From NCBI GenBank assembly GCA_022925895.1, contig JAKSYS010000592.1:1-39763 (forward strand): 39,763 bases of DNA, read 5' to 3'. The notes under the pieces were generated by a model. The model was given only the letters and a program-made list of their open reading frames with translations. It did not search any database and had not been told where the DNA came from. This document shows, piece by piece, positions 7,362 to 39,763 of the stretch; the stretch's first letter is position 1; the number at the start of each line of letters is the position of its first letter. A program made the translations under genes and the position numbers. The stretch is from Fragilaria crotonensis. Taxonomy: Eukaryota > Bacillariophyta > Fragilariophyceae > Fragilariales > Fragilariaceae.

Positions 7362-8770
7362 CAGTTTCTCGCCTTGCGAGTGCCATCACCTTTGATGGCG
7401 TAGTTCCAATGTTGACGAAGGACAATCGCATCTTTTGGTGCGGGGACAGGGGCACCATACATTTCCTGCTTTGCCATTGAGTCAAGCTGTTTGAATTCAG
7501 CAGCTTGCCACTCTTTCCAATTGGGAAGACGTCGGAGTTTACGTCGCGTGAAACTCCCAAGGCCTTGTTCTTCGGATGTTCCATGAGTCGTTGTGTTGAG
7601 CGATCGCAGCAGAAGCTGTACATGGTCATCATCGAGTTCGTCGGTATTGTCATGACGAGCGACATCATCGTCGATGGACTCTGCCGTCGAAGGTGAAGAG
7701 TTGATCAACGAGATGGTGCGAAGCTGATCAACCGACAGATGAAGCGGCTGGTCGAGATGTCGATCGGCGACGGGGATGTATCGGTCGGGAGCGAACACGA
7801 TCTTGAAGGACGGTGCGTCGGAAGCCACAGCGGCGTGGAGGGCATCCAGGATGGACGCCGCGGTGAACACGGCCACGTCGTTGATTGAAACGACGAAGGC
7901 GCCGATATACTTTCGACGAACATTTCGGATCCGAGAGGCAGTGGTGTTTGGTATTACTCCAGAGACAAAGCCTCGTTTCCGAATATGACATTCTTTGATC
8001 TCGAAGCCGAGGCTGGGATGCTCACAAGAAATGTGAGGGGACAGTTCATCGAGGCGGTCGAAAGGATCGTCGGAAACATCCAAGTTGAGGAGCGGGAGGT
8101 CTAAACGATCAGGTTCGATGACGCCATCGTCGGCCAGGTTCCGTAGAAGCTTTACGTTCGGAGGCGGCTCACTAAGATCGTTCATTCCTTCGTCGAAGCG
8201 CGCATGGGTGGCAGTCTTGACGGTTGAGCTGGCAAGGTCGAAGTAGTACATGACCTTCAGGGAGCGCGAGTAGCCAAGGAAGGTGCCGAGTCGAGAGTTG
8301 GGAACGACGCGACCGTAGCGAGCGGTTGTTGGGCGCACGTGCATACGACATCCGAATGTCCGAAGCTTTGCCAGGTTGGGGAGCGGAGCGCCACACATTT
8401 CGTATGGGCTCGACGGTCGGTCGCCATGGGGAACAAAGTTGTAGAGTCGGATGTAATGGTAGAATGCATATGGCCAGAAGTTTGGTTGTAGATTCGCGCC
8501 AGAAAGCATGGCACGAAGTGCATCGCCGATTGTCTGGTGTGGTCGTTCGCCAGGTCCATTTTGGTGTGACGAGTCGGGACCAGTAAGCTCAACTGCGTAG
8601 CCAAAGTTCGCAAAGGTACGGTGAATGTCGCGACATTTGCCGAGTTCGCCACCCCCCATCCATGCGAACATACTTGTCTGGACAATTAGGAGCATTGCTG
8701 GCAAGCCAGCTATTGATCCAATCGACGGGAGGAGCCTTTGTTGGGAAGGCACGACCGAATATACGGCCAC
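7328..8770 (-). CDS. Copia B integrase core, PDZ-like linker and RT entry
   Basis: From about residue 40 this frame carries integrase: GELGKCRDIHRTFANFGY, then the catalytic Glu in SSHQNGPGERPHQTIGDALR, and the copia integrase tail LRTFGCRMHVRPTTARYGR and LGTFLGYSRS. Residues about 250-345 read HPSLGFEIKEC, GFVSGVIPN, GAFVVSINDVAVFT and SFKIVFAPDR, a pattern resembling a PDZ fold. RT begins at LPNWKEWQAAEFKQLDSMAKQ and continues to HWNYAIKGDGTRKARNCCDG. The first 38 residues are out of frame, because a run of six G near 8655 shifts the reading. The frame ends at 7328 where a four-C run shifts it again. Integrase positions are clear. The PDZ assignment is a pattern judgement only. Confidence 0.85.
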   Translation of the reverse strand: MAVYSVVPSQQRLLPSIGSIAGLPAMLLIVQTSMFAWMGGGELGKCRDIHRTFANFGYAVELTGPDSSHQNGPGERPHQTIGDALRAMLSGANLQPNFWPYAFYHYIRLYNFVPHGDRPSSPYEMCGAPLPNLAKLRTFGCRMHVRPTTARYGRVVPNSRLGTFLGYSRSLKVMYYFDLASSTVKTATHARFDEGMNDLSEPPPNVKLLRNLADDGVIEPDRLDLPLLNLDVSDDPFDRLDELSPHISCEHPSLGFEIKECHIRKRGFVSGVIPNTTASRIRNVRRKYIGAFVVSINDVAVFTAASILDALHAAVASDAPSFKIVFAPDRYIPVADRHLDQPLHLSVDQLRTISLINSSPSTAESIDDDVARHDNTDELDDDHVQLLLRSLNTTTHGTSEEQGLGSFTRRKLRRLPNWKEWQAAEFKQLDSMAKQEMYGAPVPAPKDAIVLRQHWNYAIKGDGTRKARNCCDGSPVRHLN

Positions 8771-10143
8771 TGAAGTGGTCGGTCAGTAGGGACATAGCAC
8801 GTCTCACCGTTGAGGCCGACGAGAGTGTTGTGTCGGATTGAATCGCGGCTCTTTTGGACCATGAAACCAAAGTCGATTGACAGGCCTTGGTTGCAAGTTG
8901 TCGCCCGCATTGTGGTCCCTGTTCCTTTTGGAGTCTTCCGAAGCTTAGCGGCAAGGCAGATGGGACATTCTTCGAGCTCCGTCGGGAGCTTGAATTGTGG
9001 CATTCCTTTTACAAACCGGTGCATTTCTGATAAACGCCGGAAATTTATGTGTCCAAGGCGTTGATGCCACAGCATTCGCAAGGCCGAGCGGCTGAGGGAT
9101 CGCACGACGTATGCTTCCTGGTGGTTCGGCGAGAATTCCGGGAGGTCTTCGTCGGTGTCCAAGATGTCAGGACGTTCGGTAATGATGTCCTGGTAATCGA
9201 TTGTACGGAATTCAAGACCTGCGGGAGCCATCCCATACCCATAGATGTAGGGCCTTGCGTTACCGTCAGGTGAAACGGGCAACAGGCCTAACGGTGGGTC
9301 CAGGGCAGGTGGAGAATGGCATGCGGTGCAAGTCATGCCGTCGGTCGGATCGAGGATCGTGGCGGCAGTGGCAGGTGCATGTTCCGTGCATAGTTTCCGA
9401 ACGAGGACTTGATCCGAAGGGAGCGGAGCCAGATGGGCTTCGGGCGACGGAGCAATCAAGGCTTCGGTGAACGTCAAACCTCCTCGACTTGCCGTCGGTT
9501 GCAAGATAATGTAGATGTCTTGCGAACTTCGGAGGCGATTCGGGAAGTGAATATGTCCGATGCTCTCGGTGAAGCTTGACATGTGGTATCCATCGGTGCC
9601 CAGCTGCTTCGAAATGGCTGCGTGCGAAATAATGATGCCTGGAATTGTGGGAGTGTAGTACGTCCGAATGAACACGGACGATGGGCCTCCGGCATTTCCA
9701 CGATTATCCACTGGTACACACAAGAAACCGACGCCGACAGGTTGGTGCGCGTGATGACCGGCATCAAAGAGGCGGACGTTTGTGCGGAGTGGACGATAAG
9801 CAAACAAAAGGTGGCGATCGTTGGCAGTGCAAGCCATGGATCCGTTGTCAGCATGTGCGAACGAGAGTTGGCGGGCACGATCATATGTCTCGGCCAACCG
9901 ACGAAGCAGGATGGGATCGGGAGCAACGTCGAGACGGACGGTGTCGGACGGGAAGGGCAGGAAGCACGTCGGCAACTGAAATGGAGATCGAATTGACGTT
10001 GGGGGCTTCGAAACAGGCTTCAAAGTCGACTTCGTCTTCAGCGGTGGCACGGAGCGAATTCTGTTGATATCCCACGAGATCTTCTTTGTCGCCGTCGTCG
10101 TCGTCGTCGTTGGTGGCGGCGACGTCGATGTTGGCGGGTTCAT
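8710..10143 (-). CDS. Copia B protease and integrase N-terminus
   Basis: This frame overlaps gag by 263 nt in the +1 frame. From about residue 75 it carries DVAPDPILLRRLAETYDRAR and then the aspartic protease signature HADNGSMACTA (D-N-G/S variant of D-T/S-G). Next comes a protease-like body with DAGHHAHQPVGVG. Near residues 365-410 is the GAG-pre-integrase zinc-binding module WHQRLGHINFRRLSEM ... CPICLAAK (H-H-C-C). The integrase core begins at LSIDFGFMV (first catalytic Asp). The frame is lost at GETCYVPTD near 8790, where removing one base of CCC gives the core continuation LLTDHFSGRIFGRAFP. Confidence 0.87.
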   Translation of the reverse strand: MNPPTSTSPPPTTTTTTATKKISWDINRIRSVPPLKTKSTLKPVSKPPTSIRSPFQLPTCFLPFPSDTVRLDVAPDPILLRRLAETYDRARQLSFAHADNGSMACTANDRHLLFAYRPLRTNVRLFDAGHHAHQPVGVGFLCVPVDNRGNAGGPSSVFIRTYYTPTIPGIIISHAAISKQLGTDGYHMSSFTESIGHIHFPNRLRSSQDIYIILQPTASRGGLTFTEALIAPSPEAHLAPLPSDQVLVRKLCTEHAPATAATILDPTDGMTCTACHSPPALDPPLGLLPVSPDGNARPYIYGYGMAPAGLEFRTIDYQDIITERPDILDTDEDLPEFSPNHQEAYVVRSLSRSALRMLWHQRLGHINFRRLSEMHRFVKGMPQFKLPTELEECPICLAAKLRKTPKGTGTTMRATTCNQGLSIDFGFMVQKSRDSIRHNTLVGLNGETCYVPTDRPLQWPYIRSCLPNKGSSRRLDQ

Positions 10144-12177: not shown

Positions 12178-12580
12178 TGTGAGACCCTCCCTAGTACGGC
12201 GGCTCCACAAACAGTGACTCGCTTGGGAGTCGGGTTAGGACAAAGCCGTCGCAATGAAGAGGAACGAACGCAGAAGCAAGAAGGCACGACGCGTGGCGAT
12301 GTCGATATCGAACGTGTGATGGGTGATGTGTTGGCGTTCGTGTTGTGGCTAAGTATATCCTTCGGCCTCTTCACCCTTACGATCAAATGGACCGGCAAGA
12401 ATGCGATTGAGGGAATAAAGGATTATATTAGAAGTTGTGTGCCGATGGAGTACATCGGCCTTAAGCTAAATTAGTCGGAGTTGCGCATTTGATAGCGCAT
12501 CAGCATCGACCGTAGATAGTCGACCGTGCGCAGTAGACAGTAGCACGGTGTCATGGAGATATATAGAATATGCACTGACA
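12178..12580 (-). repeat. 5' LTR of copia B
   Basis: Identical in length and sequence to the LTR at 5366-5768. In minus-strand orientation this is the upstream LTR, so transcription of B is expected to start inside it and run toward lower coordinates. The U5 end (...GGTCTCACA) abuts the primer-binding site with no spacer. Confidence 0.95.
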
Positions 12581-12585
12581 ACATG
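12581..12585. repeat. Target-site duplication ACATG, right of element B
   Basis: This is the second copy of the 5-bp duplication and directly follows ...CTGACA, the end of the right LTR. The codons of C (TGT CAC ATG ATA TTT GAC) resume here. Confidence 0.9.
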
Positions 12586-13534
12586 TCACATGATATTTGA
12601 CATCAAGTTCGACCTAACGCGGAAGGCGCGACTCGTCCTGAACGGTGCGAAACATGAAGTACCGAAGGAGATGACCTTCTCGAGCGTCGTTTCACGTGAC
12701 AGCGTTCGGAACGCATTCACTCTTGCGGCATTGAACGGACTCGATATCTTGGCAGCGGACATCCAAAATGCTTATCTCTCGGCACCGACCGAGGAAAGGC
12801 TATACGTCGTTGCCGGGTTGGAGTTCCCACCCGATCTGCGAGGACGACCAGCAAAGATTGTGCGGGCACTTTATGGCATGAAGTCGTCGGGAGCGCGATT
12901 CAGGGACCATCTTGCCGCATCGCTCCGGGACATGGGGTATGTCAGTTGCAAGGCGGATCCGGACGTATGGATGAAGGCTGCGACAAAGGCCGATGGAACG
13001 AAGTTTTACAGTTATGTTTTGGCGTACGTCGATGATATCCTTTGCCTCGACACGAATCCAAAGAATGTGATGGACGCTTTGTCCAAGGTCTACAAGCTAA
13101 AGGATGGGAGCGTCAAGGCACCGGATGTATATCTTGGGGCTGAAGTAAAGCAATTCAAGATACCCGAGTCGGACGAGCCTGAAGATCAGGTGGGCCATGT
13201 CTTCATCCAAGTATGTGACAAGGGCAGTCAAGGACGTCGAGACAGAGTTAGAAAATGTGGGATTGGGGTTGCCGAAACGCACTACGACCCCACTACGTCA
13301 GGGTTATCGACCGGAGTTGGATCAAACGGCGGAGTTGGATGCGCAGCGACTAAACTATTACCAAGGGCTGGTCGGCGTATTGAGGTGGATCTGCGAACTC
13401 GGGCGAGTGGACATACTGATGCCGGTTTCTCTCATGTCACGTTACCTTGTGTCGGCGAGGGAGGGGCATCTTCAGCAATTGTTCCATGTGTTTGCATATT
13501 TGAAACAGTACGACCGATCGACGATGGTGTTTGA
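12581..13534 (+). pseudogene. Copia C reverse transcriptase
   Basis: This is the right half of C after element B. The reading CHMIFDIKFDLTRKARLVLNG continues the left half in frame. RT motifs are LAADIQNAYLSAPTEERLYV (first Asp), RALYGMKSSGARFRDHLAAS and AYVDDILCL (YVDD). It proceeds through YLGAEVKQFKIPESDEP to about 13190, where a single-base shift (after EDQVGHV) moves the true reading to the next segment. The residues after 13195 in this frame are spurious. An ATG at 12548 lies in the LTR of B and is not a real start. Confidence 0.85.
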
Positions 13535-26237: not shown

Positions 26238-26855
26238 CGATGTGGCCACATGCAGACGGAGAAATCTACATATTTAGATGAAACTCTCGCGGGTAACACC
26301 GCCGGGGTGGGGTACGCATTCTGGGCCTAACGGTCTGGACGAGGCGATAACCCGATAATTAGTTTACGTTTTGTTTCAATTTATAAAGTTCCGTGACGAG
26401 ATCATGAACGTCAATCCTACGACCTACGATGATGGATCGCAAGATTGCAGGAGTGTGTTGAATAATATTACTGACGGAATGACCGGACATAGTGAGAGGA
26501 CGAACTGAGACGAAACGAATACCGGATGGAGAACCGTGGAGTCTAAACAAGACATTAAGGAGAAACCGAAGCGGTCACGATTAAGTGCCGGCAAGACTGA
26601 GAACGTATCACGTGTGAACGAAAAGGTCAATTGTAAACGGACCAGCTTGGGAAAGGAGTGATAGTCTCATTCTAATTTAATTTTCCGATTTACAAGCGAT
26701 TTAATCTCCCAGTGTTGACTGCAGTACTGTATCGTTGTCTAATTGGCACGTAGGTACTGTGTGTTAATATTGTGGTTTCAACACTTACATGTATGATACT
26801 ACGAGCCGCTAAAAAGGTTGCAGCTCGGATTATTGTCGACACCACACTATTCCAA
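26238..26855. other. Gene-free stretch downstream of the DUF6824 gene
   Basis: Short open frames on both strands have no protein-like character. CAACACTGGGAGATTAAATC and the GTAC-containing words near 26720-26760 are the only notable sequence. It probably includes the 3' untranslated region of the minus-strand gene ending at 26856. Confidence 0.5.
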
Positions 26856-27919
26856 TCACAAAAATTGACTACTAAACCAGCGGCAAAGGCTCTGCGCATC
26901 CTCAACCTGGCACCCCAATGTCTGATTTGGATCGCCAAAAAAGAAGTTGACAATGGACCGTCCGTAAATAGCGGTATACATATTCAAAGTCGCTTCCACC
27001 GAATCCAAACCATGCGCGTCACGCGTTTCCCAATCATTAGGTGAGACAGCTGGCAGCATCGAAGCATCATTCAAGTCCTCCCAACGTCGATCTGATTGTT
27101 CCGACGGTTGATCCACCTCAGAGTCTGCGGGGGAAAGAGGTTTATGATGCCTTTGCTCAGAAATAGTGTTGACAGTAATGCAACCGTTCTTTCTATGCTT
27201 GGAAGCTTCTTCAAGCACAGCAAGTTGGTTATCCTGCAGCGCCGAAGTGAAGTCAAAAGGTGTTTTCGGTGAGGAAACGGATGCATAGGTATTCTTCTCT
27301 GGCTTTGTTGGAGCACCATGGCAATGAGGGGCCTCGTCGTCAACAGTGATCTCGGCCCTATTGTCGTATGACTTGATGCTGCACATTTCCTCCAGGGTTT
27401 GTTCCTCCCCAGAGATGACTGGCTTGGCCTGGTCTGTGTACTTTTGTTCTGTAATGGCGGGACGGAAGTTCTTCGGAACCACTTTCATGTTGCCCCCGAT
27501 CGTAGCCGTTGACAGTCGAGCATCGCGAAGTCCGTGACCCACCTTGTTCACGGCCATATGATGAGGCGCTTCAATCCAGGTCCCAGTTGAGGATCTCTGG
27601 AGAAAACGATAACCCAGCGCTTCAAGCTTGAGAATCAACATCTTGACCACGGCCGTCTTTTCCCCTTCGAAGTGCTTTATTCGTGGTATAGTGGACCGTA
27701 TTTCTTCACCATTTTGCGAAAGACCCTGTTGCCTGGGTTGTTGTAGGACCCGGGACCGCGTCCAAGCAAAATGTCTGTCGGCTCAATCAACAACATGGTT
27801 GGAGCCTCGAATCTGGTTGCCAACCCCTCCTGCAATGTGCCTTGACGGTTCATGCGAGGGCTCGAATTTGGATTTGCCTGTTCCGAAGCGAGATGAAGGT
27901 AACATTTTTTATGGGACAT
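26856..27919 (-). CDS. DUF6824-domain protein (apparent frameshift)
   Basis: Host-type gene. The N-terminal frame (27919-27677) carries TDILLGRGPGSYNNPGNRVF and KMVKKYGPLYHE, the opening of the DUF6824 domain found widely in diatoms. The second frame (27650-26856) continues the same domain as HFEGEKTAVVKMLILKLEAL and GYRFLQRSSTGTWIEAPHHM, then VGHGLRDAR. A polar C-terminal region of about 200 residues follows, ending NQTLGCQVEDAQSLCRWFSS. The two frames differ by one base at CACGAATAAAGCAC (about 27675-27688), with no splice signals there. This is either a sequencing indel or a pseudogene. The function of the family is unknown to me. It may be nuclear, because some members carry other DNA-binding domains. 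Confidence 0.8.
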
Positions 27920-29820: not shown

Positions 29821-30021
29821 CCTAAGGGGGCGGGCCTAAAAATAGATAAAATATCCACAGATATAGATACTTTTACTTGATACGGCGGGTGTCATTTTTA
29901 ACTGAGGATTTGTACGGTGGGTGTCACTTTTTGTACGTCGTGTGTCACTTTTTATTTAGAGACGTGTACGTCGGGTGCTACGCCGCGTTCCCGTAGATCC
30001 CGTACCATCTCAATTGGCGCG
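29821..30021 (+). promoter_or_regulatory. Phased regulatory module M1
   Basis: Starts CCTAAGGGGGCGGG, then TAGATAAAATATCC and ATAGATACTTTTACTTGA. TACG repeats begin at 29881, 29913, 29934 and 29967 (variant CGGGTGTCA). GTAC is at 30002 and TGGCGC at 30015, 48 bp after the last repeat. The distance from start to first repeat is 60 bp, the same as in the other three modules. Confidence 0.7.
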
Positions 30022-30042
30022 CTAACCCCTAACCCCTAACCC
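30022..30042. repeat. Telomere-like CCCCTAA repeat
   Basis: Three units of the CTAACCC type in CCCCTAA spacing directly follow the TGGCGC box of M1. Diatom telomeres are usually CCCTAA, so this seven-base variant is telomere-like only and very short. Confidence 0.45.
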
Positions 30043-30758
30043 GGCGGCACACCATCCCATCGATCTCCACGGGGTACCCCCAGTCTGTCGCGTCCCCGGT
30101 GCCCCTGGTTGCTCCCATGACCCTCTTGCCGGTGTGACTCGCGTTTGGGAGTGCCAAACCAACAATCACGACGAGTGTCAATGATGTCTCCTCCTCGACG
30201 ATGCTCCCAGTGTCGACCGTGTTCACGAGGCTCCCAATCAGGCGCACCACCTTCTCGACCCAACGCACACTGCATACCGTCACCTTCAACATCACACCAA
30301 ACGCCCGAACGTGGGCGCTTCCGTTCACCATGCCACGAACCAGGATCACGACTGCGGCAAAGACTCCAGTGGTTATCCGACGAGCCCGGATCACGACTGC
30401 GGCAAAGACTCCGGTGGTTATCCGACGAGCCCTTGCCACCATAGCCAGGCTCACCCTCGCGACCGCTCCGATCCGGATGCCGACCGCCGTATCTGTGTTC
30501 ACGAGGTGCGTTTCGCGTTCCACACACCTCAAATTCCCATGACCGCAAGTTTCGACACCTCCGAAGCGATTCCCACCCGCTTGTTTGACGTTCTCCATCA
30601 ACATAATCGTCACATCCGCCGATGAAAGCAGCAGCCTCACCGGAACACGAGTGATGTTCCCTGGAACGGATTTTTCCACGTCGATCGGATTTTTCCTCGA
30701 AAATCGGACCCGTATCACGAGATGCGACATCACCAGGGCACCGCGCCACGCAATCCAC
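30036..30758 (-). CDS. GC-rich low-complexity region with long open frames
   Basis: About 720 bp that are much richer in GC than the surroundings. The minus strand is open in two frames (240 and 234 codons) and the plus strand in several shorter ones, so codon bias alone cannot decide. The minus product would be Gly/Arg/Asp/His-rich (SLCRSRDPGSSDNHWSLCRS) and contains a 15-residue repeat. The plus strand, downstream of M1, offers HDCGKDSSGYPTSP units. No family is recognised. If M1 is a promoter, the plus-strand reading would be the natural one. Confidence 0.2.
   Translation of the reverse strand: MDCVARCPGDVASRDTGPIFEEKSDRRGKIRSREHHSCSGEAAAFIGGCDDYVDGERQTSGWESLRRCRNLRSWEFEVCGTRNAPREHRYGGRHPDRSGREGEPGYGGKGSSDNHRSLCRSRDPGSSDNHWSLCRSRDPGSWHGERKRPRSGVWCDVEGDGMQCALGREGGAPDWEPREHGRHWEHRRGGDIIDTRRDCWFGTPKRESHRQEGHGSNQGHRGRDRLGVPRGDRWDGVPPG
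30343..30432. repeat. Two tandem 45-bp units
   Basis: GGATCACGACTGCGGCAAAG starts at 30343 and again at 30388, and the units differ by about one base. The period is a multiple of three, so all frames stay open across it. Confidence 0.8.
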
Positions 30759-30771
30759 GTAACCGCGGATC

Positions 30772-30983
30772 CCTAAGGGAGCGAGCTTCTATGTAGATTA
30801 TATATCCTCAGGTATGGATACTTTTATTAGATACGTTGGGAGTGATTTTTGTACGTCGGGAGGGACATTTTTGTACGTCGAGAGGGATCCCCCAGTAATG
30901 ATTCCTACGTTAGACAGCTCGATTTTGTACGTCGGGAGTTACGATCGATCCAAGTAGAATTCGGTACTATCGAAATTGGCGCG
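30772..30983 (+). promoter_or_regulatory. Phased regulatory module M2
   Basis: Starts CCTAAGGGAGCGAG, then TAGATTATATATCC and ATGGATACTTTTATTAGA. TACG repeats begin at 30832, 30852, 30874, 30906 and 30928 (variant CGGGAGGGA). GTAC is at 30964 and TGGCGCGGCTC at 30977, 49 bp after the last repeat. M2 replaces the continuation of the M1 region. Confidence 0.7.
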
Positions 30984-31055
30984 GCTCCCGACTGACTTTA
31001 TTACACAGGCACACAAACATCACGGCTTGTCCATAACAAACTCATCATTCCCATC

Positions 31056-31156
31056 ATGCCATCATCAAGCTCTCCTCCAATACAAAAGCTGGTTAACGGA
31101 ATTATCAGTCCTGTTGTTTCTGTCCGTCTTCCGGTGCAAAGCACAGAGATCGACCC
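31056..31156 (+). pseudogene. Truncated ORF start downstream of M2
   Basis: ATG at 31056 opens MPSSSSPPIQKLVNGIISPV, then VSVRLPVQSTEIDP, a protein-like N-terminus of about 33 codons. It is cut by the start of module M3 at 31157, after which the frame enters non-coding sequence. No homologue is recognised. It fits the pattern that each module is followed by the beginning of a gene. Confidence 0.4.
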
Positions 31157-31346
31157 CCTAAGGGGGCGGGGTTCAAATTAGATAAAATGTCCTCAAGTAT
31201 AGATGCTTTTACTTGATACGGCCGGAGGGGAAATTTGTACGTCCGGAGGGGAATTTTATACGTCCGGAGGGTTTTTTACTTAGGAACGAATACGTCCGGA
31301 AGGAAAACGCTATCCGTACAATTTGCTCGTACAAAAATATGGTGCA
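31157..31346 (+). promoter_or_regulatory. Phased regulatory module M3
   Basis: Starts CCTAAGGGGGCGGGG, then TAGATAAAATGTCC and ATAGATGCTTTTACTTGA. TACG repeats begin at 31217, 31238, 31259 and 31291 (variant TCCGGAGGGG; spacings 21, 21, 32). GTAC is at 31329 and TGGTGC at 31340. The ATG of helicase copy 1 is at 31476. It is nearly identical to M4. Confidence 0.75.
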
Positions 31347-31475
31347 ATTTAGGTGCATCAACTCATCGAATGATAGTCTTTACGTATGTTAAACCAGGTA
31401 TGGTCAAAATGTTTTTGCCGCCCAATTTTTGAACTATGCACTCGGCACTCCTGGTACAAGCGCCATTATCACATC

Positions 31476-33307
31476 ATGATGACCACCCTTGAGATACAAG
31501 AGGTGACTACCAACAACATGTCTCCTTTGCAAGCATCTGATCAACTTGATCACCCCCCTGCATCACTTCAAGGTATATTTTCCATTTCTCCCTTTGGACT
31601 TGGGTGTCGACTCTGCCCAAAAAAAGTGTCTATCCAGATCAATGAGAGATGCATCCGTGAGCATGTCAAAAAACATGGTTTTGACAGCAGGGCCGCGTCT
31701 ATCCGTTCCCTTTTTGATACTTTTGTAACAAAACTGGAAGTCATAAAGGCTGCTGGAACAATTGAGCCGTTCCGAATTGACAACAGTACTTATAAGGGAT
31801 TTTCATGCATCTGCGGTGAAGTTTTTCCAAGAAAGGACAACGCACGCCGTCACTGCACAAGGTTGGTTGTGATCCGTCTTGTCTCCAGAAGGTTGAGCTC
31901 ATCAAATTGTGTTGTGGTCAATTTGTTTCAGAGGTGCAAATTGACAAGTTCTTCAACACTGTACCTCGAATCACGCAGCAATTTGATTACTGCAAGGCAA
32001 GAGCGGCTTTGCTTCCTTTCCTTCCACCCAGGGAAAAGCACGACCATACGTACACACACATGTACACCCCATCATTGATGGTTGTGTTTGTCCACAAGAC
32101 TTTGTAAGAAGGATAAAAATGACTTCATTTCTATCCATTCTCCACTGAGCCAAATGCATGAGACAGTTCTGATCAAAATTCATAACCAAGCTGAAAATTG
32201 GCTTTGAATTTTGCGCAGAAGAATATTTTGATGGTGCTAGGGAATCTCCGCGCTGGACTACAAAATTTTGATGCTGGTGAAGTCAATGGTATGTCACAAG
32301 GGAAGACTTATACGATGCAGCATGATCCATCCAGCTTACTACCTGAATTGAAGAAGCTTTTATCCTATTCCTATCGCAAGGGCCTTTTTGCATCAAGGGT
32401 TTTGATGAAAGCGATGAATTTGCAGTCGCATATTTTGAAAGATTTTTTGCTTGAAGTTCCACCATCAGTTGCCACGCATCCCTTTGCGGTGGAATTCTGT
32501 CTCATGTTTCCTTTTCGTATCTGCTCAGGAATCAAAAATCTCTGATATCCTGTGACACTGTGTCATCGTTATTCTCCAAGGTAGCATCGCTTCTGAAAGC
32601 AGCAGTAGTTCCCGTCATCTGCTCTTTTCAGAGCAGTCATCCACCCATTCTGGAGATTTGCTTGTGTCATCTATTCGCAAGGCTCCGTACTCCATATTCT
32701 GTCACCGATGGTTCGACAAATAAGAGAAATGCATGAACGACTACCAAAAAGGCAAAACTATGATTGACTCCGTGGAAATATCATTGTTGACCAATATGCA
32801 TTTCCATCGACAACTGGTCACGATAGTACCCACAGCCTTACCTTGATGCGGAGTCGCTAACTCATTTGGCTGATGGTTCCTGGTGGAGCCTGTGGTGATC
32901 CATCAACATTTATCAGAGTCCATGTCGATGATGATACGGCAGACATTTCATTGCTCGATGTCACTCCCTGTTGGAATTTTGGACTTTCATTCCTTGTTGA
33001 TCATTTGGATTGTTTAACGGCACTGTTGAAGATGGCATTTCATGGTTTTGGAGGAGGATCTGCAAGGATGAGAGAGTTGACAGAACCAACTATGTTTCAC
33101 TGCGTGTACAGCAACAATGCTTTATATTACTCCATGACGTCACTGAAGGGTTTTAACAGTTCTTCTCGTCGTCGGTTTAAGAAAGTGGAGCGAAAACTCC
33201 CTCCTGTCATCACTCGATACTTTTTGTTGTACCGATCTCTCGTCAATGCGAATGTGAATCTTTTTGAGCAATCCAATTCCCTTTTCATCTTTCCAAAGCG
33301 GATAACA
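31476..33307 (+). pseudogene. OrsD-like zinc-finger/helicase protein, copy 1, truncated
   Basis: This is the N-terminal part of the protein encoded in full by copy 2. ATG 31476 (MMTTLEIQEVTTNNMSPLQA) leads to a zinc finger CRLCPKKV ... CIREHVKKHG, and then CICGEVFPRKDNARRHC. This matches the two-finger pattern of fungal OrsD (DUF3505) proteins. Homology to copy 2 continues to GATAACACC at 33309, where module M4 starts and the coding text is cut. The helicase motor is absent. The copy differs from copy 2 mostly by one- or two-base indels in homopolymers, with its first frame break at AAGGTTGG near 31863. Confidence 0.75.
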
Positions 33308-33497
33308 CCTAAGGGGGCGGGGTTCAAATTAGATAAAATGTCCTCAAGTATAGATGCTTTTACTTGATACGGCCGGAGGGGAAATTTGTACGTCCGGAGG
33401 GGAATTTTATACGTCCGGAGGGTTTTTTACTTAGGAACGACTACGTCCGGAGGGAAAACGCTATCCGTACAATTTGCTCGTACAAAAATATGGCGCA
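33308..33497 (+). promoter_or_regulatory. Phased regulatory module M4
   Basis: Lies 2151 bp after M3 with the same layout: CCTAAGGGGGCGGGG, TACG repeats at 33368, 33389, 33410 and 33442, GTAC at 33480 and TGGCGC at 33491. The helicase copy 2 ATG is at 33627. It directly interrupts copy 1 after ATAACACC. Confidence 0.75.
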
Positions 33498-33626
33498 ATT
33501 TAGGTGCATCAACTCATCGAATGATAGTCTTTACGTATGTTAAACCAGGTATGGTCAAAATGTTTTTGCCGCCCAATTTTTGAACTATGCACTCGGCACT
33601 CCTGGTACAAGCGCCATTATCACATC

Positions 33627-35586
33627 ATGATGACCACCCTTGAGATACAAGAGGTGACTACCAACAACATGTCTCCTTTGCAAGCATCTGATCAACTTGA
33701 TCACCCCCCTGCATCACTTCAAGGTATATTTTCCATTTCTCCCTTTGGACTTGGGTGTCGACTCTGCCCAAAAAAAGTGTCTATCCAGATCAATGAGAGA
33801 TGCATCCGTGAGCATGTCAAAAAACATGGTTTTGACAGCAGGGCCGCGTCTATCCGTTCCCTTTGATACTTTTGTAACAAAACTGGAAGTCATAAAGGCT
33901 GCTGGAACAATTGAGCCGTTCCGAATTGACAACAGTACTTATAAGGGATTTTCATGCATCTGCGGTGAAGTTTTTCCAAGAAAGGACAACGCACGCCGTC
34001 ACTGCACAAGGTTGGGTTGTGATCCGTCTTGTCTCCAGAAGGTTGAGCTCATCAAATTGTGTTGTGGTCAATTTGTTTCAGAGGTGCAAATTGACAAGTT
34101 CTTCAACACTGTACCTCGAATCACGCAGCAATTTGATTACTGCAAGGCAAGAGCGGCTTTGCTTCCTTTCCTTCCACCCAGGGAAAAGCACGACCATACG
34201 TACACACACATGTACACCCCCATCATTGATGGTTGTGTTTGTCCACAAGACTTTGTAAGAAGGATAAAAAATGACTTCATTTCTATCCATTCTCCACCGA
34301 GCCAAATGCATGAGACAGTTCTGATCAAAATTCATAACCAAGCTGAAAATTGGCTTTTGAATTTTGCGCAGAAGAATATTTTGATGGTGCCAGGGAATCT
34401 CCGCGCTGGACTACAAAATTTTGATGCTGGTGAAGTCAATGGTATGTCACAAGGGAAGACTTATACGATGCAGCATGATCCATCCAGCTTACTACCTGAA
34501 TTGAAGAAGCTTTTATCCTATTCCTATCGCAAGGGCCTTTTGCATCAAGGGTTTTGATGAAAGCGATGAATTTGCAGTCGCATATTTTTGAAAGATTTTT
34601 GCTTGAAGTTCCACCATCAGTTGCCACGCATCCCTTTGCGGTGGAATTCTGTCTCATGTTTTTTTCGTGTATCTGCTCAGGAATCAAAAATCTCTCTGAT
34701 ATCCTGTGACACTGTGTCATCGTTATTCTCCAAGGTAGCATCGCTTCTGAAAGCAGCAGTATGCTCCGTCATCTGCTCTTTTTCAGAGCAGTCATCCACC
34801 CATTCTGGAGATTTGCTTGTGTCATCTATTCGCAAGGCTCCCGTACTCCATATTCTGTCACCGATGGTTCGACAAATAAGAGAAATGCATGAACGACTAC
34901 CAAAAAGGCAAAAAACTATGATTGACTCCGGTGGAAATATCATTGTTGACCAATATGCATTTCCATACGACAACTGGTCACGCATAGTACCCACAGCTCT
35001 TACCTTGATGCGGGAGTCGCTAACTCATTTGGCTGATGGTTCCTGGTGGGAGCCTGTGGTGGATCCATCAACATTTATCAGAGTCCATGTCGATGATGAT
35101 ACGGCAGACATTTCATTGCTCGATGTCACTCCCTGTTGGAATTTTGGACTTTCATTCCTTGTTGATCATTTGGATTGTTTAACGGCACTGTTGAAGATGG
35201 CATTTCATGGTTTTGGAGGAGGATCTGCAAGGATGAGAGAGTTGACAGAACCAACTATGTTTCACTGCGTGTACAGCAACAATGCTTTATATTACTCCAT
35301 GACGTCACTGAAGGGTTTTAACAGTTCTTCTCGTCGTCGGTTTAAGAAAGTGGAGCGAAAACTCCCTCCTGTCATCACTCGATACTTTTTGTTGTACCGA
35401 TCTCTCGTCAATGCGAATGTGAATCTTTTGAGCAATCCATTCCCTTTTCATCTTTCCAAAGCGGATAACACCTTCAAATTTTGGTGTTCCAAATTTGTTC
35501 AGGAATATTTTCAATTTGGATTCATCACCCGATATGCGGCAGATTCGACAATTTTGGGCGTGTGTTTCAAACTTTGTTACTGGTGA
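33627..35586 (+). CDS. OrsD-like N-terminal and middle region of helicase copy 2
   Basis: Reads from ATG 33627 with the same start as copy 1. The two cysteine/histidine fingers come first (CRLCPKKV...HVKKHG and CICGEVFPRKDNARRHC). Then come RITQQFDYCKARAALLPFLP and SQMHETVLIKIHNQAENWLL. The 34588-35586 frame carries LHILSPMVRQIREMHERLPK, HGFGGGSARMRELTEPTMFH and KLPPVITRYFLLYRSLVNAN. The last two blocks resemble the middle region of fungal OrsD/telomere-linked RecQ proteins (about 1,300 residues overall). The frame is broken near 33866 (TTT where copy 1 has TTTTT) and near 34545-34600. Copy 1 is open across both, so the gene may be intact in reality. Confidence 0.7.
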
Positions 35587-35664
35587 CGATGAGGATGGAA
35601 AGGCTTTTTGACATCCACAGCAAGTTCTGTGGCGGCATCAAAATGGGGCACTCAAAGATGACAC

Positions 35665-37659
35665 ATGGTGTTGCTTATTCAAGCAAGCGACTTGGGGCTG
35701 AAGAATCTCACTTCAATGCTTATCACTTTGCCATCGGGGACATCCTACCAGATGTCTCATCTGCAATCATGCAAACTATCATTGGGTGATATTCGGATGG
35801 CAATGTCGCTACGGTATCCGAAGGCTATTTTAACTGATGGACACAACTATCTTTCATCTCAACAGAAGGAACTTGTTGAGTTTGGATACGGTCGTGAACA
35901 TGACTTATATCAGAGACCACAACATTGCTTTGGACTTCTTGCCCCTGGTGAAGGAAAATCTGAAGTTTTCATTATTCCAACCATTGCAAGACGGATCGGC
36001 AATCAAAGAAGCAAAATGATTATTCATGTGTCGCCCTATAATTTTTTGGCTCTCTACCAATTCAATAATGCAACCACTGCTTTTGACAAAGTCGGCTTTG
36101 GAACAAGCATTTCCACTTGCATCTTCACTGGCGGGGACATCAATGTTGGATTGCTACCCGATGAGCTTTCCAACAAGGAGGATCTCCCAAACATTCTCTT
36201 TCTCAACCTGGACGCTCTCTTCAACTTGTTCACGTTTCATTTTGAAACATTCAAGTCGTGGATTGACGTCATGGATAAGATTGTTATTGATGAGGTCCAT
36301 ACTTTTCTTACAGAATTAAGCTTTCGGGAGAAGTATCAGGTTTATTGGAGACTTGCTGTTCTTGGGATTCCGATTGTGGCATTGAGTGGATCAGTCCCTT
36401 TGTTCATTCTTTCTAAATTTGCAATGCGACTTTGTTTGTCTCGTGACAAACAGATGAATGACATCAAGATTATTCACGGCGGGCTCCTTTTTGGACATTT
36501 TCCTCATGGATTCCGAATCAAATTTTCAGTCACACCGAGATACATACACCAAGTTGCCAGTTTTGCTATTCATCGTGTGCATGAGGGTGTGGGAGCAGTT
36601 CATATCTTTGTTGTTGACAAGTGTGATGGAGAACTTCTTGAACAGCGCATTACATCCAAATCTGTAAATTGTGTCTTCATATCGTCTGATACCCCCGCAG
36701 AAGATTTGAAGGCTGTTGCTAAAAAATGGGGCATGGGAGGATTCGACATCCTGATATCAACCTCGATTGCATTAGTTGGGAATGAAAATCCTGCTTGCCG
36801 ATTCGTTGCTTGCGCGGGGTACCTGTTCGATGCTATGCAGGTTATTCAAGGGTTTGGTCGCCTTCGACAGTACATGAGAATTCCTAGCGGCCAAATCTTC
36901 TTTGCGGCACCAGAAGCCTTGTCAAAACGAAGAATCAAGGACGATGAACAGCGATTCACAAGGCTTCTGAATGAAAACCTTGTATCTGAGGGGGATCATG
37001 CACTTTTTAGACAAACAATGACTTCGGGCGGTGTACGTGACTGGACCATGGATGCAGCATCAGGAAACCGTGACTGTGCATTGAAGGTTATGTCACAGTC
37101 ATTTGGAAAAGAGATGGAGAATTGCGGTGCTTGCCATTTTTGTCGCCACATTCCAACCCATAATGCTCAGGCTGAGGCCACCAAACGGATGGCAACTGAA
37201 AGGCGAAACGAACAAGCGACTGAACGAGTCCTTCAGAAGCTCGCTTTGTGTTGTCTTGCGTGCAACAAGACTTATTGTCGTGGAATCCCCTTATTGAATG
37301 GGAAGGGCAGCAAATCACTGCCTGAGAATAAAGGTTGTTGTTTCCTCTGGAAAAACTGTTATCAATGCGGTGTGAGTTCTCATGACCGCCAGCTTTGTTT
37401 TGATAAGACCTATTTGAATAATGTGGCTTGTTGTGAGTGTTGGGTTTTCAAAAAGGTACCAGGCTCTAAACATCACGCAAAGACAGATTGTGAAGTAAAG
37501 GGTAGGTTGAGGCGGTTGTTGTCACATCATTTTGTTAACACCAAGGTTAAGGGATCATTCAAGGACTTCCTTGAGGGTATCTACACTTCCTCGACCTCGT
37601 TCTGTGAGTTCATGGCTGTGATTGATAGTACTTACAATACAAAAAATAATTCTATTTAG
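35665..37659 (+). CDS. SF2 DNA helicase, RecQ/telomere-linked-helicase-like, copy 2
   Basis: Motor domain continuing the OrsD-like protein. Walker A is APGEGKSE (residues 93-100) and the DExH box is VIDEVH (207-212). Motif III is ALSGSVP (239-245), motif V FDILISTSIALVGNENP (from 360) and motif VI QVIQGFGRLRQ (392-402, arginine finger). The C-terminus is rich in Cys/His pairs (CGACHFCRHIPTHNA, CCLACNKTYC, NCYQCGVSSHDRQLCF, CCECWVF), suggesting several zinc sites. The first ~40 residues are out of frame; the true upstream text (MGHSKMTHGVAYSSKRLGAE, about 35642-35701) joins near 35785. The stop is at 37659, 21 bp before the minisatellite. It is probably nuclear, unwinding DNA. A role in telomere maintenance or mobility is inference from fungal relatives. 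Confidence 0.8.
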   Translation: MVLLIQASDLGLKNLTSMLITLPSGTSYQMSHLQSCKLSLGDIRMAMSLRYPKAILTDGHNYLSSQQKELVEFGYGREHDLYQRPQHCFGLLAPGEGKSEVFIIPTIARRIGNQRSKMIIHVSPYNFLALYQFNNATTAFDKVGFGTSISTCIFTGGDINVGLLPDELSNKEDLPNILFLNLDALFNLFTFHFETFKSWIDVMDKIVIDEVHTFLTELSFREKYQVYWRLAVLGIPIVALSGSVPLFILSKFAMRLCLSRDKQMNDIKIIHGGLLFGHFPHGFRIKFSVTPRYIHQVASFAIHRVHEGVGAVHIFVVDKCDGELLEQRITSKSVNCVFISSDTPAEDLKAVAKKWGMGGFDILISTSIALVGNENPACRFVACAGYLFDAMQVIQGFGRLRQYMRIPSGQIFFAAPEALSKRRIKDDEQRFTRLLNENLVSEGDHALFRQTMTSGGVRDWTMDAASGNRDCALKVMSQSFGKEMENCGACHFCRHIPTHNAQAEATKRMATERRNEQATERVLQKLALCCLACNKTYCRGIPLLNGKGSKSLPENKGCCFLWKNCYQCGVSSHDRQLCFDKTYLNNVACCECWVFKKVPGSKHHAKTDCEVKGRLRRLLSHHFVNTKVKGSFKDFLEGIYTSSTSFCEFMAVIDSTYNTKNNSI

Positions 37660-37680
37660 AGAAGAGCTAAGTTGTTGGAA

Positions 37681-37951
37681 GGCACTGGAATGTTTTGTTC
37701 GAGTAGCCCCGCGGAGATTTACTGTCCGTCAACCGGGGAACGCGGGGCACTGGAATGTTTTGTTCGAGTAGCCCCGCGGAGATTTACTGTCCGTCAACCG
37801 GGGAACGCGGGGCACTGGAATGTCTTGTTCGAGTAGCCCCGCAGAGATTTACTGTCCGTCAACCGTGTAACGCGGGGCACTGGAATGTTTTGTTCGAGTA
37901 GCCCAGCAGAGATTTACTGTCCGTCAACCGGGGAACGCGGGGCACTGGAAT
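37681..37951. repeat. 65-bp hairpin minisatellite (4.2 copies)
   Basis: Units start with GGCACTGGAAT at 37681, 37746, 37811 and 37876, and a partial unit starts at 37941. Consecutive units bring GCCCCGC and GCGGGGC within about 30 bases, so each can fold into a seven-pair GC stem with a loop holding GGAGATTTACTGTCCGTC. Copies 3 and 4 carry a few substitutions. In copy 4 GCCCCGC is GCCCAGC, which weakens the stem. The array separates two convergent genes. Confidence 0.92.
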
Positions 37952-38028
37952 ATTATCAAGTAATCATGAAGTGCGTAACAATCATCCAGATTGTTTGCAC
38001 CTGTAAACACACAACTACTAAAACAGAG

Positions 38029-38691
38029 CTAATTCAAACTATTATCATTCTTACCAACCACAGCCGTCTTCAGGTACAAGGACAAACAAAAGACATCCAC
38101 ACTTTGAAATGCAGAAGTACGAGAGGACAAACAGTGGTGATACAGCGGATTGAAAATCAGCATGTCACCTGGTCTCAATGCAACAGCGATTCCTTGTTCG
38201 GCAAAAGTGAAATAGTTACTGACATCAGCATCCATGCTGTACCTGTCAATGTCTTGCTGCAGTCCGTGCTCAGAAGTAACGGTTGTCAAAGAATAAAAGA
38301 AATCCTCATCAACATGGGAATTCAAATAGTAGTTCCGCCCACAAGCAAGACTTCCCCAGATTGGATTGGAGGACACTCCACTGATCTCCTTCCACTCACC
38401 AAGTACTTGTGCAATGCGCAGACCACGGAGTTCGTTTGATGGAATGTAGCCCTTGGCAGCTTCCTCACAACGTGCCATTAACTTTCTAATTGAGTTCCTG
38501 TCAGCAATGTTCAATTTCTGCGGCCAGATCTCAGAAACGCCCACAGAGCCTCGGTTTGGTTTCAATCCCACTGTCACATACTTGCCATTGTCTTCCGCCA
38601 CTGTGATTCGAGTCTTTCCACGCACTTCAGCTGCTCGCTTCGCATCATCTAAGGCATACAGAGAAGCAATTGTCTTTTTCACATGTGTCAT
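38029..38691 (-). CDS. TET/JBP-like 2-oxoglutarate/Fe(II) dioxygenase domain protein
   Basis: A 220-residue frame with a double-stranded beta-helix oxygenase core. NYYLNSHVDEDFFYSLTT gives the HxD iron pair (about residue 127). NYFTFAEQGIAVALRPGDML and IFNPLYHHCLSSR give the distal His and a following Arg that would bind 2-oxoglutarate. Upstream is a basic region (DDAKRAAEVRGKTRI) and KYVTVGLKPNRGSVGV. The GI-LRPGD-L-F-P--H layout fits the TET/JBP group, which oxidises thymine or 5-methylcytosine in DNA, but other 2OG oxygenases share it. ATG 38691 is probably internal, since homologous-looking text (MESAAGDTVFTLIPVTMQSI) lies just upstream in another frame. Confidence 0.7.
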   Translation of the reverse strand: MTHVKKTIASLYALDDAKRAAEVRGKTRITVAEDNGKYVTVGLKPNRGSVGVSEIWPQKLNIADRNSIRKLMARCEEAAKGYIPSNELRGLRIAQVLGEWKEISGVSSNPIWGSLACGRNYYLNSHVDEDFFYSLTTVTSEHGLQQDIDRYSMDADVSNYFTFAEQGIAVALRPGDMLIFNPLYHHCLSSRTSAFQSVDVFCLSLYLKTAVVGKNDNSLN

Positions 38692-39220
38692 TTTATGGAT
38701 TGCATCGTGACGGGGATCAAGGTAAACACAGTGTCACCAGCAGCAGACTCCATTCTGGCTCCAAAATGGTGTCGATTACCTTTAGATCTTCCATTGCTGA
38801 AAGCATAATGCCATTGTCAATGGGATTGGGAGACTTCTCCTGGGTGTCCCACTATAAAACACAGGGCGCGTGCTCAAGAATGACCTTCCCATTGCGTGCA
38901 CATTTGATGGCAACACCTCCTGAAGGCTGGCGATTTTCTTTGACTTCTTATTATCTCTACGTTTGCCCAGCTTGCTATTTGGCGTACCTTTGTCGTCGAT
39001 GCATCGTGTGCAACCATCACTCTGTGACTCGAATTTGTCTTCGACTTGTAGACATGCTGGAACCCCGCTTCTTGGGATTGGGATTGTCATCACTTACATC
39101 ATCATCTGAGTATTCTTTGCTGTGTGTATTCATGTCGATCTGGGCTCTGCCACCATTCCCGATGTCCAGACTAGCTGTGTCCATTTTCTCAATGATAGGG
39201 AAGCATGTATGCCGTCGCAT
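38692..39220 (-). pseudogene. Probable N-terminal part of the dioxygenase gene, frameshifted
   Basis: Minus-strand pieces with coding character precede the oxygenase. From 39184 they read MDTASLDIGNGGRAQIDMNT, an acidic stretch (KEYSDDDVSDDNPNPKKRG) and SSMSTSRRQIRVTE. Then come CIDDKGTPNSKLGKRRDNKK and SKKIASLQ. A third frame gives GVAIKCARNGKVILEHAPCV and NPIDNGIMLSAMEDLKVIDT. The basic clusters could be nuclear signals. Joining them needs about four single-base shifts, one at an AAAA run beside the 38691 ATG. A pseudogene or sequencing errors are both possible. Confidence 0.45.
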
Positions 39221-39344
39221 TAATCATGCCCCCCCAGTCATTGGTCTCGGCGCTGCGGCTACCTGGTACATCATGGTGAGCAGCGTCCATTTCGCTACAA
39301 GAGTACAAACATTAAAGGGCAACACAGAAGCGATGCAGGATTAA

Positions 39345-39763
39345 TGAGAAAACACAAAAAAAGTGATTCCAAACAGGTGCATTTGCTTTCTTGTTAAGAA
39401 TATTTGTAAGTAATAAATTTTTAGTAAGACTTAATTTGCTAACAATTTAATTAGTATCCAAATTCAATACACATACATGAAAGCTAAGTGTTTCATGTGT
39501 TAACAAGTCATGCAAAGGTATATTTAACAATGATGGGAGTTGAAAGATGCCGGTACTTAGATTATTATTGACTTGCATTTAATTGTAATAAATAACTAAA
39601 TGGTTGGATTAATATATTCTACACTTTATTTAATTAGCCTTAACTAGAAGTCTAAGATTCCTTAATTAAAGGAATCATGGACAAATCTGTGCGTTGAAAA
39701 TAAAAACACGATTCATTTCGTGTAACAAAACTGACGTTTTGCGATGACGTTTATATACAATTA
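39345..39763. other. AT-rich gene-free end of the window
   Basis: Strongly AT-rich and without protein-like frames. A perfect inverted repeat GATTCCTT-AATTA-AAGGAATC lies at 39656-39676. AT-rich tracts of this kind are ordinary between diatom genes, though diatom centromeres are also AT-rich. The segment is too short to judge. Confidence 0.5.

What the first reader, a model, noticed from the sequence alone, without database searches (positions are those of the whole stretch)
29821..33497. Four promoter-like modules with rigid spacing and helically phased repeats
Modules starting at 29821, 30772, 31157 and 33308 share one layout despite strong sequence divergence. The first TACG repeat is exactly 60 bp from CCTAAGG in all four. 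Repeats are then spaced 32/21/33, 20/22/32/22, 21/21/32 and 21/21/32 bp, that is about two or three helical turns. TGGCGC or TGGTGC lies 48, 49, 49 and 49 bp after the last repeat, preceded by GTAC at 11-13 bp. The repeat flank differs between modules but is nearly uniform within one (CGGGTGTCA; CGGGAGGGA; TCCGGAGGGG), as if each set co-evolved with its own binding protein. Measured by hand from the sequence. The binding-protein idea is inference.
Basis: partly seen in the sequence, partly recalled or inferred. Interest (0 to 1): 0.88.

Follow-up and report, generated by a model that had tools for sequence, protein, structure and literature searches.

The report
Telomere-ended recombinase elements in a diatom
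The four "modules" are the fixed starting ends of mobile DNA elements that pile up, all facing the same way, toward chromosome tips of a diatom and carry a gene for a predicted DNA-recombining enzyme fused to a helicase; this may be a new way for mobile DNA to use a chromosome end.

Summary
The layout is real, but these are not free-standing promoters: CCTAAGG is the fixed end of a mobile element. I found 95 such heads on 29 contigs of this genome, very probably Fragilaria crotonensis. Each contig is one-directional. On the four contigs that begin with telomere repeats, heads point at the telomere. Left flanks differ and homology starts at CCTAAGG. The older element is cut at a varying place, mostly at CC or CCT, and was not seen to resume. 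So arrays grew on the telomere side. In 40 of 64 longer head segments one gene follows in sense: zinc-finger motifs, a domain with a predicted tyrosine-recombinase/topoisomerase-IB fold and its catalytic residues, and a RecQ-like helicase. I found no reverse transcriptase in the window's element. Best reading: a recombinase-driven, one-ended element whose other end is the telomere; the head is recombination end, promoter and probable zinc-finger array. That the recombinase acts at the head is inferred. Modules 3 and 4 are near-identical copies, so the window shows three families.

The parts
29821..30022 (+). Head of element family B, truncated after 202 bp
   Evidence: 95-100% copies at C508, C572, C783, C754, C411 (92-95%) and others over about 202 bp; same head at C411:13318 aligns over 202 bp
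30022..30042 (+). Three telomere-like repeats (CTAACCCC) in the orientation opposite to a telomere lying to the right
   Evidence: sequence; not part of the B copy at C411
30039..30771 (+). G+C-rich segment, 98.6% identical over 733 bp to a stretch proximal of the B head on C411; probably joined by end fusion
30772..31156 (+). Element family C: head (TGGCGC at 30977-30982), truncated after 385 bp
   Evidence: empty site CCTTGATCC in C654, C271, C588 at the next junction
31157..33310 (+). Element family A, copy 1: head, repeats at 31217/31238/31259/31291, TGGTGC at 31340, start of the gene; truncated at CCT
33308..39763 (+). Element family A, copy 2: head (TGGCGC at 33491) to contig end
   Evidence: C592 copy colinear for 6.07 kb at 97%
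33718..37659 (+). Gene for zinc-finger / tyrosine-recombinase-fold / RecQ-like helicase protein; frame interrupted in this copy
37681..38005 (+). 65-bp tandem repeats distal of the gene

Best explanation
The modules are the one defined end of a family of mobile elements that lie at chromosome ends of a diatom. The head combines the recombination end (CCTAAGG...), an array of repeats for the element's own zinc fingers, and the promoter of its one large gene, which makes a zinc-finger / tyrosine-recombinase / RecQ-like helicase protein. The element has no second end of its own: it runs on to the telomere. To move, the recombinase cuts just before CCTAAGG in a donor and at a C^CC(T) site in another chromosome end and joins the target's 3' end to the head. 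The helicase peels the donor strand toward the telomere, so everything from head to telomere is copied onto the target, and the target's old tip is lost. Shown: fixed end, one direction per contig, telomere side on four contigs, junctions at CC(T), no resumption of the target, gene content, predicted recombinase fold with conserved residues. Inferred: that this recombinase acts at the head, one-stranded transfer, peeling by the helicase (a 3'-5' polarity of RecQ enzymes, recalled, would fit), zinc fingers binding the repeats, promoter function.
Confidence: 0.55

Rival explanations
1. Break-induced replication or end joining by host enzymes alone: broken chromosome ends capture the distal part of another end with a few bases of microhomology; the head is only a break- or fork-stall-prone site.
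For: CC/CCT microhomology; three-head tract shared behind different flanks on C588 and C783; telomere healing and a fused end are present.
Against: Microhomology repair would use many donor positions, but the donor side starts at the same base; target preference extends to -1 C and +4 T; does not explain a recombinase gene behind the head.
Confidence: 0.2
2. Chromosome-end retroelement, as in Drosophila HeT-A or rotifer terminons: an RNA whose 3' end is ...CCUUAGG is copied onto an exposed chromosome end, primed by CC, by a reverse transcriptase supplied elsewhere.
For: One-directional head-to-tail arrays with truncation, as described for Drosophila (passages of PMC5537684); CC priming would fit; 14-bp leaders at 5 loci look like restarts.
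Against: No RT family in the ORFs of element A that I scanned; RVT_1 matches on head-bearing contigs lie outside the A copies (RVT_2 not searched genome-wide). The gene reads away from the fixed end, so the template would be antisense. No poly(A) or poly(T) run at junctions.
Confidence: 0.12
3. Promoter modules only: conserved promoters of a subtelomeric helicase gene family, copied about by ordinary recombination between chromosome ends.
For: Gene 214-534 bp behind the head in 40 of 64 segments; TGGYGC box 47-50 bp after the last repeat in 20 of 73 heads.
Against: Does not explain the exact left border, differing left flanks and CC(T) junctions. Promoter function is probably true as well.
Confidence: 0.08
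4. Nested insertions of an ordinary two-ended transposon.
For: Heads sit inside other copies.
Against: Targets were not seen to resume; the resumptions listed are partial matches or second copies of the same family; one direction per contig.
Confidence: 0.03

Closest known systems
Starship elements of fungi (captain tyrosine recombinase)
   Same: Recombinase gene first behind the fixed edge, reading inward, and a Cre-like predicted fold (passages of PMC12506042).
   Different: Starships have direct repeats and empty sites with both halves; here one end only, telomere position, helicase fused, and no Pfam DUF3435 match.
Crypton elements, including CryptonS of oomycetes and a diatom
   Same: Tyrosine recombinase in DNA elements of stramenopiles (passages of PMC3212892).
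   Different: [quoted passage not shown] RecQ is not mentioned in that paper (term count 0); here a helicase fusion, one end, telomere arrays.
HeT-A/TART/TAHRE, GilT/GilM, Athena and terminons (telomeric retroelements)
   Same: Head-to-tail arrays in one direction at chromosome ends, with truncation (passages of PMC5537684 and PMC6431247).
   Different: Those move through RNA; here no RT found in the element and the gene reads away from the fixed end.
Telomere-linked helicases of fungi
   Same: RecQ-like helicase genes near telomeres (passages of PMC12857005).
   Different: Whether they carry a recombinase domain or a fixed head was not tested here.
Helitrons
   Same: Nuclease/helicase fusion (passages of PMC6431247); strand-peeling as an idea (recalled).
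   Different: Helitrons use a Rep nuclease and have a 3' end (recalled in part); here a tyrosine-recombinase fold and no 3' end found.

Membership tests
Tyrosine recombinase / topoisomerase IB superfamily | Catalytic-domain fold | tested here: met
   Rows 1-22 and 1-30 of two structure comparisons are all of this superfamily; Foldseek E-values alone not significant
Tyrosine recombinase / topoisomerase IB superfamily | Catalytic R-K-R-H-Y (motif recalled) | tested here: met
   R534, K561, R640 invariant, H672 and Y681 at least 90% of 30 sequences
Tyrosine recombinase / topoisomerase IB superfamily | His of the H-x-x-R box (variable in the superfamily, recalled) | tested here: not met
   T or R at that place in most rows
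Starship | Tyrosine-recombinase gene first at the 5' edge | tested here: met
   Sense gene behind 40 of 64 head segments, antisense behind 0
Starship | DUF3435 captain domain | tested here: inconclusive
   No Pfam match up to E 5 in five proteins; distant relatives could be missed
Starship | Second boundary with direct repeats and a resuming target | tested here: not met
   No resumption in the sequences held
[quoted passage not shown]
   Only one terminus defined
Telomeric retroelements | Reverse transcriptase in the element family | tested here: not met
   None in the element A ORFs scanned or among RVT_1 matches inside A copies; HeT-A itself also lacks one (recalled)
Telomeric retroelements | One-directional arrays at chromosome ends | tested here: met
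Telomere-linked helicase (fungi) | RecQ-like helicase gene near telomeres | tested here: met
   Protein matches on C490, C592 and C754, which begin with telomere repeats
Telomere-linked helicase (fungi) | Common ancestry with the fungal proteins | not tested
   No fungal protein was compared; the database search lists named hits only from F. crotonensis
Helitron | Rep (HUH) nuclease domain | tested here: inconclusive
   No Pfam Rep match; absence is not proof

The most novel reading that the evidence does not exclude
A class of DNA mobile elements with only one end of their own, the other being the chromosome tip. A zinc-finger/tyrosine-recombinase/RecQ-like helicase fusion transfers the strand from head to telomere onto other chromosome ends, so the element both spreads and re-caps eroded ends without reverse transcription, and each family's repeats are matched to its own zinc fingers.
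Probability: 0.4. Interest if true: 0.95.

Novelty: new variant of a known kind. Interest (0 to 1): 0.82.

Why it matters
The telomere-attached mobile elements in the review passages I read move through RNA (PMC5537684, PMC6431247). A recombinase-helicase element that uses the telomere as its second end would be a new route for building and exchanging chromosome ends, would suggest a function for RecQ-like genes near telomeres, and gives a natural series of DNA repeats paired with zinc fingers. My ten searches of the held library listed no paper that by title or abstract describes such elements; most subscription papers and preprint servers are outside it.

Tried and rejected
Rfam at gathering threshold over the window: no match. 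PDB by sequence: none for P0001, helicases only for P0016 and the profile. Pfam on P0001, P0016, P0027, P0034, P0033 and P0008: DEAD and, in some, Helicase_C only. IMG/VR: 44 stretches matched a peptide pattern, none encodes a relative by tblastn. Protein database with the profile: 61 proteins, organism names only from F. crotonensis (7,991 candidates scored). Reciprocal products of exchange: 24 rows over 40 sites, no clean case; most lie in one minisatellite. Nested insertion: rejected. C389:38490 and C588:16371 first looked like one site with two heads; flanks are 62% alike over 300 bp, so I count them as the same position in two related elements, not one locus. An inverted pair TCAAGTA...TACTTGA seen by eye in head A is absent from head C and was dropped. 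C273 was followed 2.5 kb further: its element leaves the C578 copy at about 35,120 without a new head; unexplained.

Caveats: heads are related and some contigs near-duplicates (same flank and head: C121/C847, C121/C411 twice, C273/C578 twice, C300/C665, C349/C703), so the 2^-66 overstates independence. Binomial backgrounds (C 0.24, T 0.28) were assumed. Loci were fetched because they match modules A, B or C, contigs were read in part (about 218 kb in all), and genome searches score a capped list (for example 40 of 96 candidates, 55 of 184). An earlier count said 81 and 'about 169' where the output gives 82 (19-22 bp) and 169; entry 4 calls the 1.3-kb-residue relatives 1330-1370 aa, the table gives 1,325-1,370.

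Full report
What was checked first. CCTAAGG is at the four stated positions and the layout is as described. Modules 3 and 4 start two copies of one 2.15-kb direct repeat, 98-99% identical, so the window holds three head families: B (29821), C (30772) and A (31157, 33308).

Which genome. The window is contig C551 of a 62.1-Mb, 881-contig genome. Three NCBI proteins named Fragilaria crotonensis lie on contigs whose lengths equal those of C592, C389 and C776 (lengths). The organism is very probably this pennate diatom (lineage). Telomere repeats are a CCCTAA/CCCCTAA mix.

The modules are element ends. Module A, B and C queries gave 41, 42 and 25 genome matches, lower bounds. CCTAAGGGDGCGRG has 58 matches, its reversed control none. 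In the fetched loci the sequence left of CCTAAGG differs between copies, apart from near-duplicate contigs, and homology starts at CCTAAGG. A head profile finds 90 heads on 29 contigs, 95 after more pieces were added. All 29 contigs are one-directional, 21 of them with two or more heads.

They point to telomeres. Four contigs begin with telomere repeats: C23, C490, C592, C754. All four carry heads, on the strand that points at the telomere. C427 has telomere arrays at 70.4-70.7 and 97.1 kb, its length is unknown to me, and no head was found on it. In C23 the last element runs into telomere repeats. The A copy on C578 goes on past the window's end into a minisatellite also found, at 76%, beside the C754 telomere. 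Of the 29 contigs, 18 have less sequence ahead of than behind their heads, 10 of the 14 above 45 kb; C273, C300, C349 and C431 do not. This measure is rough: C754, which has a telomere ahead, also fails it.

How elements join. For 43 of 95 heads I found an unoccupied relative of the flank, 40 distinct sites. The target reads C at +1 in 34, C at +2 in 35 and T at +3 in 27 of 40, matching the head's CCT. It also prefers C at -1 (22) and T at +4 (18), which matching the head does not explain; binomial tails 2.5e-5 and 0.016. Eight sites share no or one base, one of them (C23:12809) because of the relative chosen; other relatives there read CCT. One site (C592:22631) has a head without its first bases. 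The older element is truncated: A copies stop at 456, 1328, 1494, 2166 and about 2640 and 2746, and none was seen to resume on its contig. Resumptions listed are partial matches or second copies of the same family.

Swaps at the head. Two loci have 97% identical flanks but different heads, diverging 9 and 14 bp after the junction: C23:1482/C121:83993 and C588:12139/C783:10420. A three-head tract is shared by C588 and C783 behind different flanks. Five loci carry one or two 14-bp leaders CCTAAGGAGAAGGC before another head, 7 matches in all, as if a head had joined at the first internal CCT of an earlier one.

The gene. Of 64 head segments of 700 bp or more, 40 encode the same protein in sense, first match 214-534 bp behind the head, and 24 show no match; none matches in antisense. 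A protein search of the genome gives 71 matches; 61 lie on the 29 head-bearing contigs, all in the heads' direction. Some copies have open frames, others are broken; the window copy is interrupted. Relatives of 1,325-1,370 aa occur in metagenomes. Order: two Cys/His zinc-finger-like motifs, a middle region, a DEAD/Helicase_C helicase (Pfam) and a Cys-rich end; some sources name it RecQ.

No reverse transcriptase found in element A. The ORFs scanned have no RT family. RVT_1 has 111 matches in the genome; those on head-bearing contigs (C23, C121, C271, C273, C300, C413, C508) lie outside the A copies. Copia-type RVT_2 occurs in the window's left part, away from the heads; it was not searched genome-wide.

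Co-variation. Repeat units correlate with the zinc-finger region, r 0.38, partial 0.34 given the head, 0 of 2000 permutations; head against finger region 0.20, and -0.09 given the unit (30 distinct of 32 rows). Over all 24 rows the values are 0.47 and 0.42 for the two finger regions and 0.24 for the control stretch; over 17 family representatives 0.36, 0.28 and 0.04. This supports, modestly, the idea that each repeat set has its own binding protein.

Mechanism (inference). A tyrosine recombinase leaves a 3' phosphotyrosine and a 5' OH (recalled). Cutting the target at C^CC(T) and the donor before CCTAAGG would let the target's 3' end join the head's 5' end. A 3'-5' helicase on the other donor strand would travel toward the telomere and peel off the head-to-telomere strand. 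Direction and subtelomeric position then follow from viability, since other outcomes would lose genes or a centromere. No reciprocal product was seen, in line with one-sided transfer, but only about 218 kb was searched.

Comparison. It works like a chromosome-end retroelement in its arrays and like a Starship in having a recombinase gene at the fixed edge, but a defining feature of each was tested and not met: no RT in the element, no second end. Literature seen as passages: PMC3212892, PMC10799480, PMC12636532, PMC12857005, PMC6431247, PMC12506042, PMC5537684, PMC12477816; for other papers only search listings.

Noticed in passing
window 30022-30042; C411:23106-23126: Interstitial telomere repeats. 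On C411 an element is cut inside its gene and followed by TTAGGGG repeats in telomere orientation, then foreign sequence; in the window the repeats face the other way and lead into a segment 98.6% like C411, as in an end fusion.
   Followed up: partly
C427:70399-70733 and 97101-97146: Two telomere-repeat arrays of opposite strand away from the contig's start; fusion or assembly chimera.
   Followed up: no
C273:33153-35120: Two heads with 155 kb of contig ahead; the element leaves its C578 counterpart without a new head.
   Followed up: partly
window 38029-38691 (- strand): 220-aa ORF convergent with the helicase gene in the distal part of element A; no Pfam family over its cut-off (best TRI9, E 0.016). 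By eye it recalls an iron-dependent oxygenase; untested.
   Followed up: partly
window 37681-38005: 65-bp tandem repeats, four copies of which the last is 68% alike, behind the helicase gene.
   Followed up: no
window 8710-10143 (-) and 12548-13534 (+): Retrotransposon pieces: gag_pre-integrs and RVT_2.
   Followed up: no
C588:18203-19399 and 26542-27871: A copy of element A appears split at one point by 7.1 kb, with complementary borders overlapping by 4 bp, as if an LTR-type element had inserted.
   Followed up: no
C269:54335, C783:6210, C754:15168 and others: 24 of 64 head segments, several with CCTAAGGAAAAGGGG heads, show no match to the gene; possibly non-autonomous elements.
   Followed up: no
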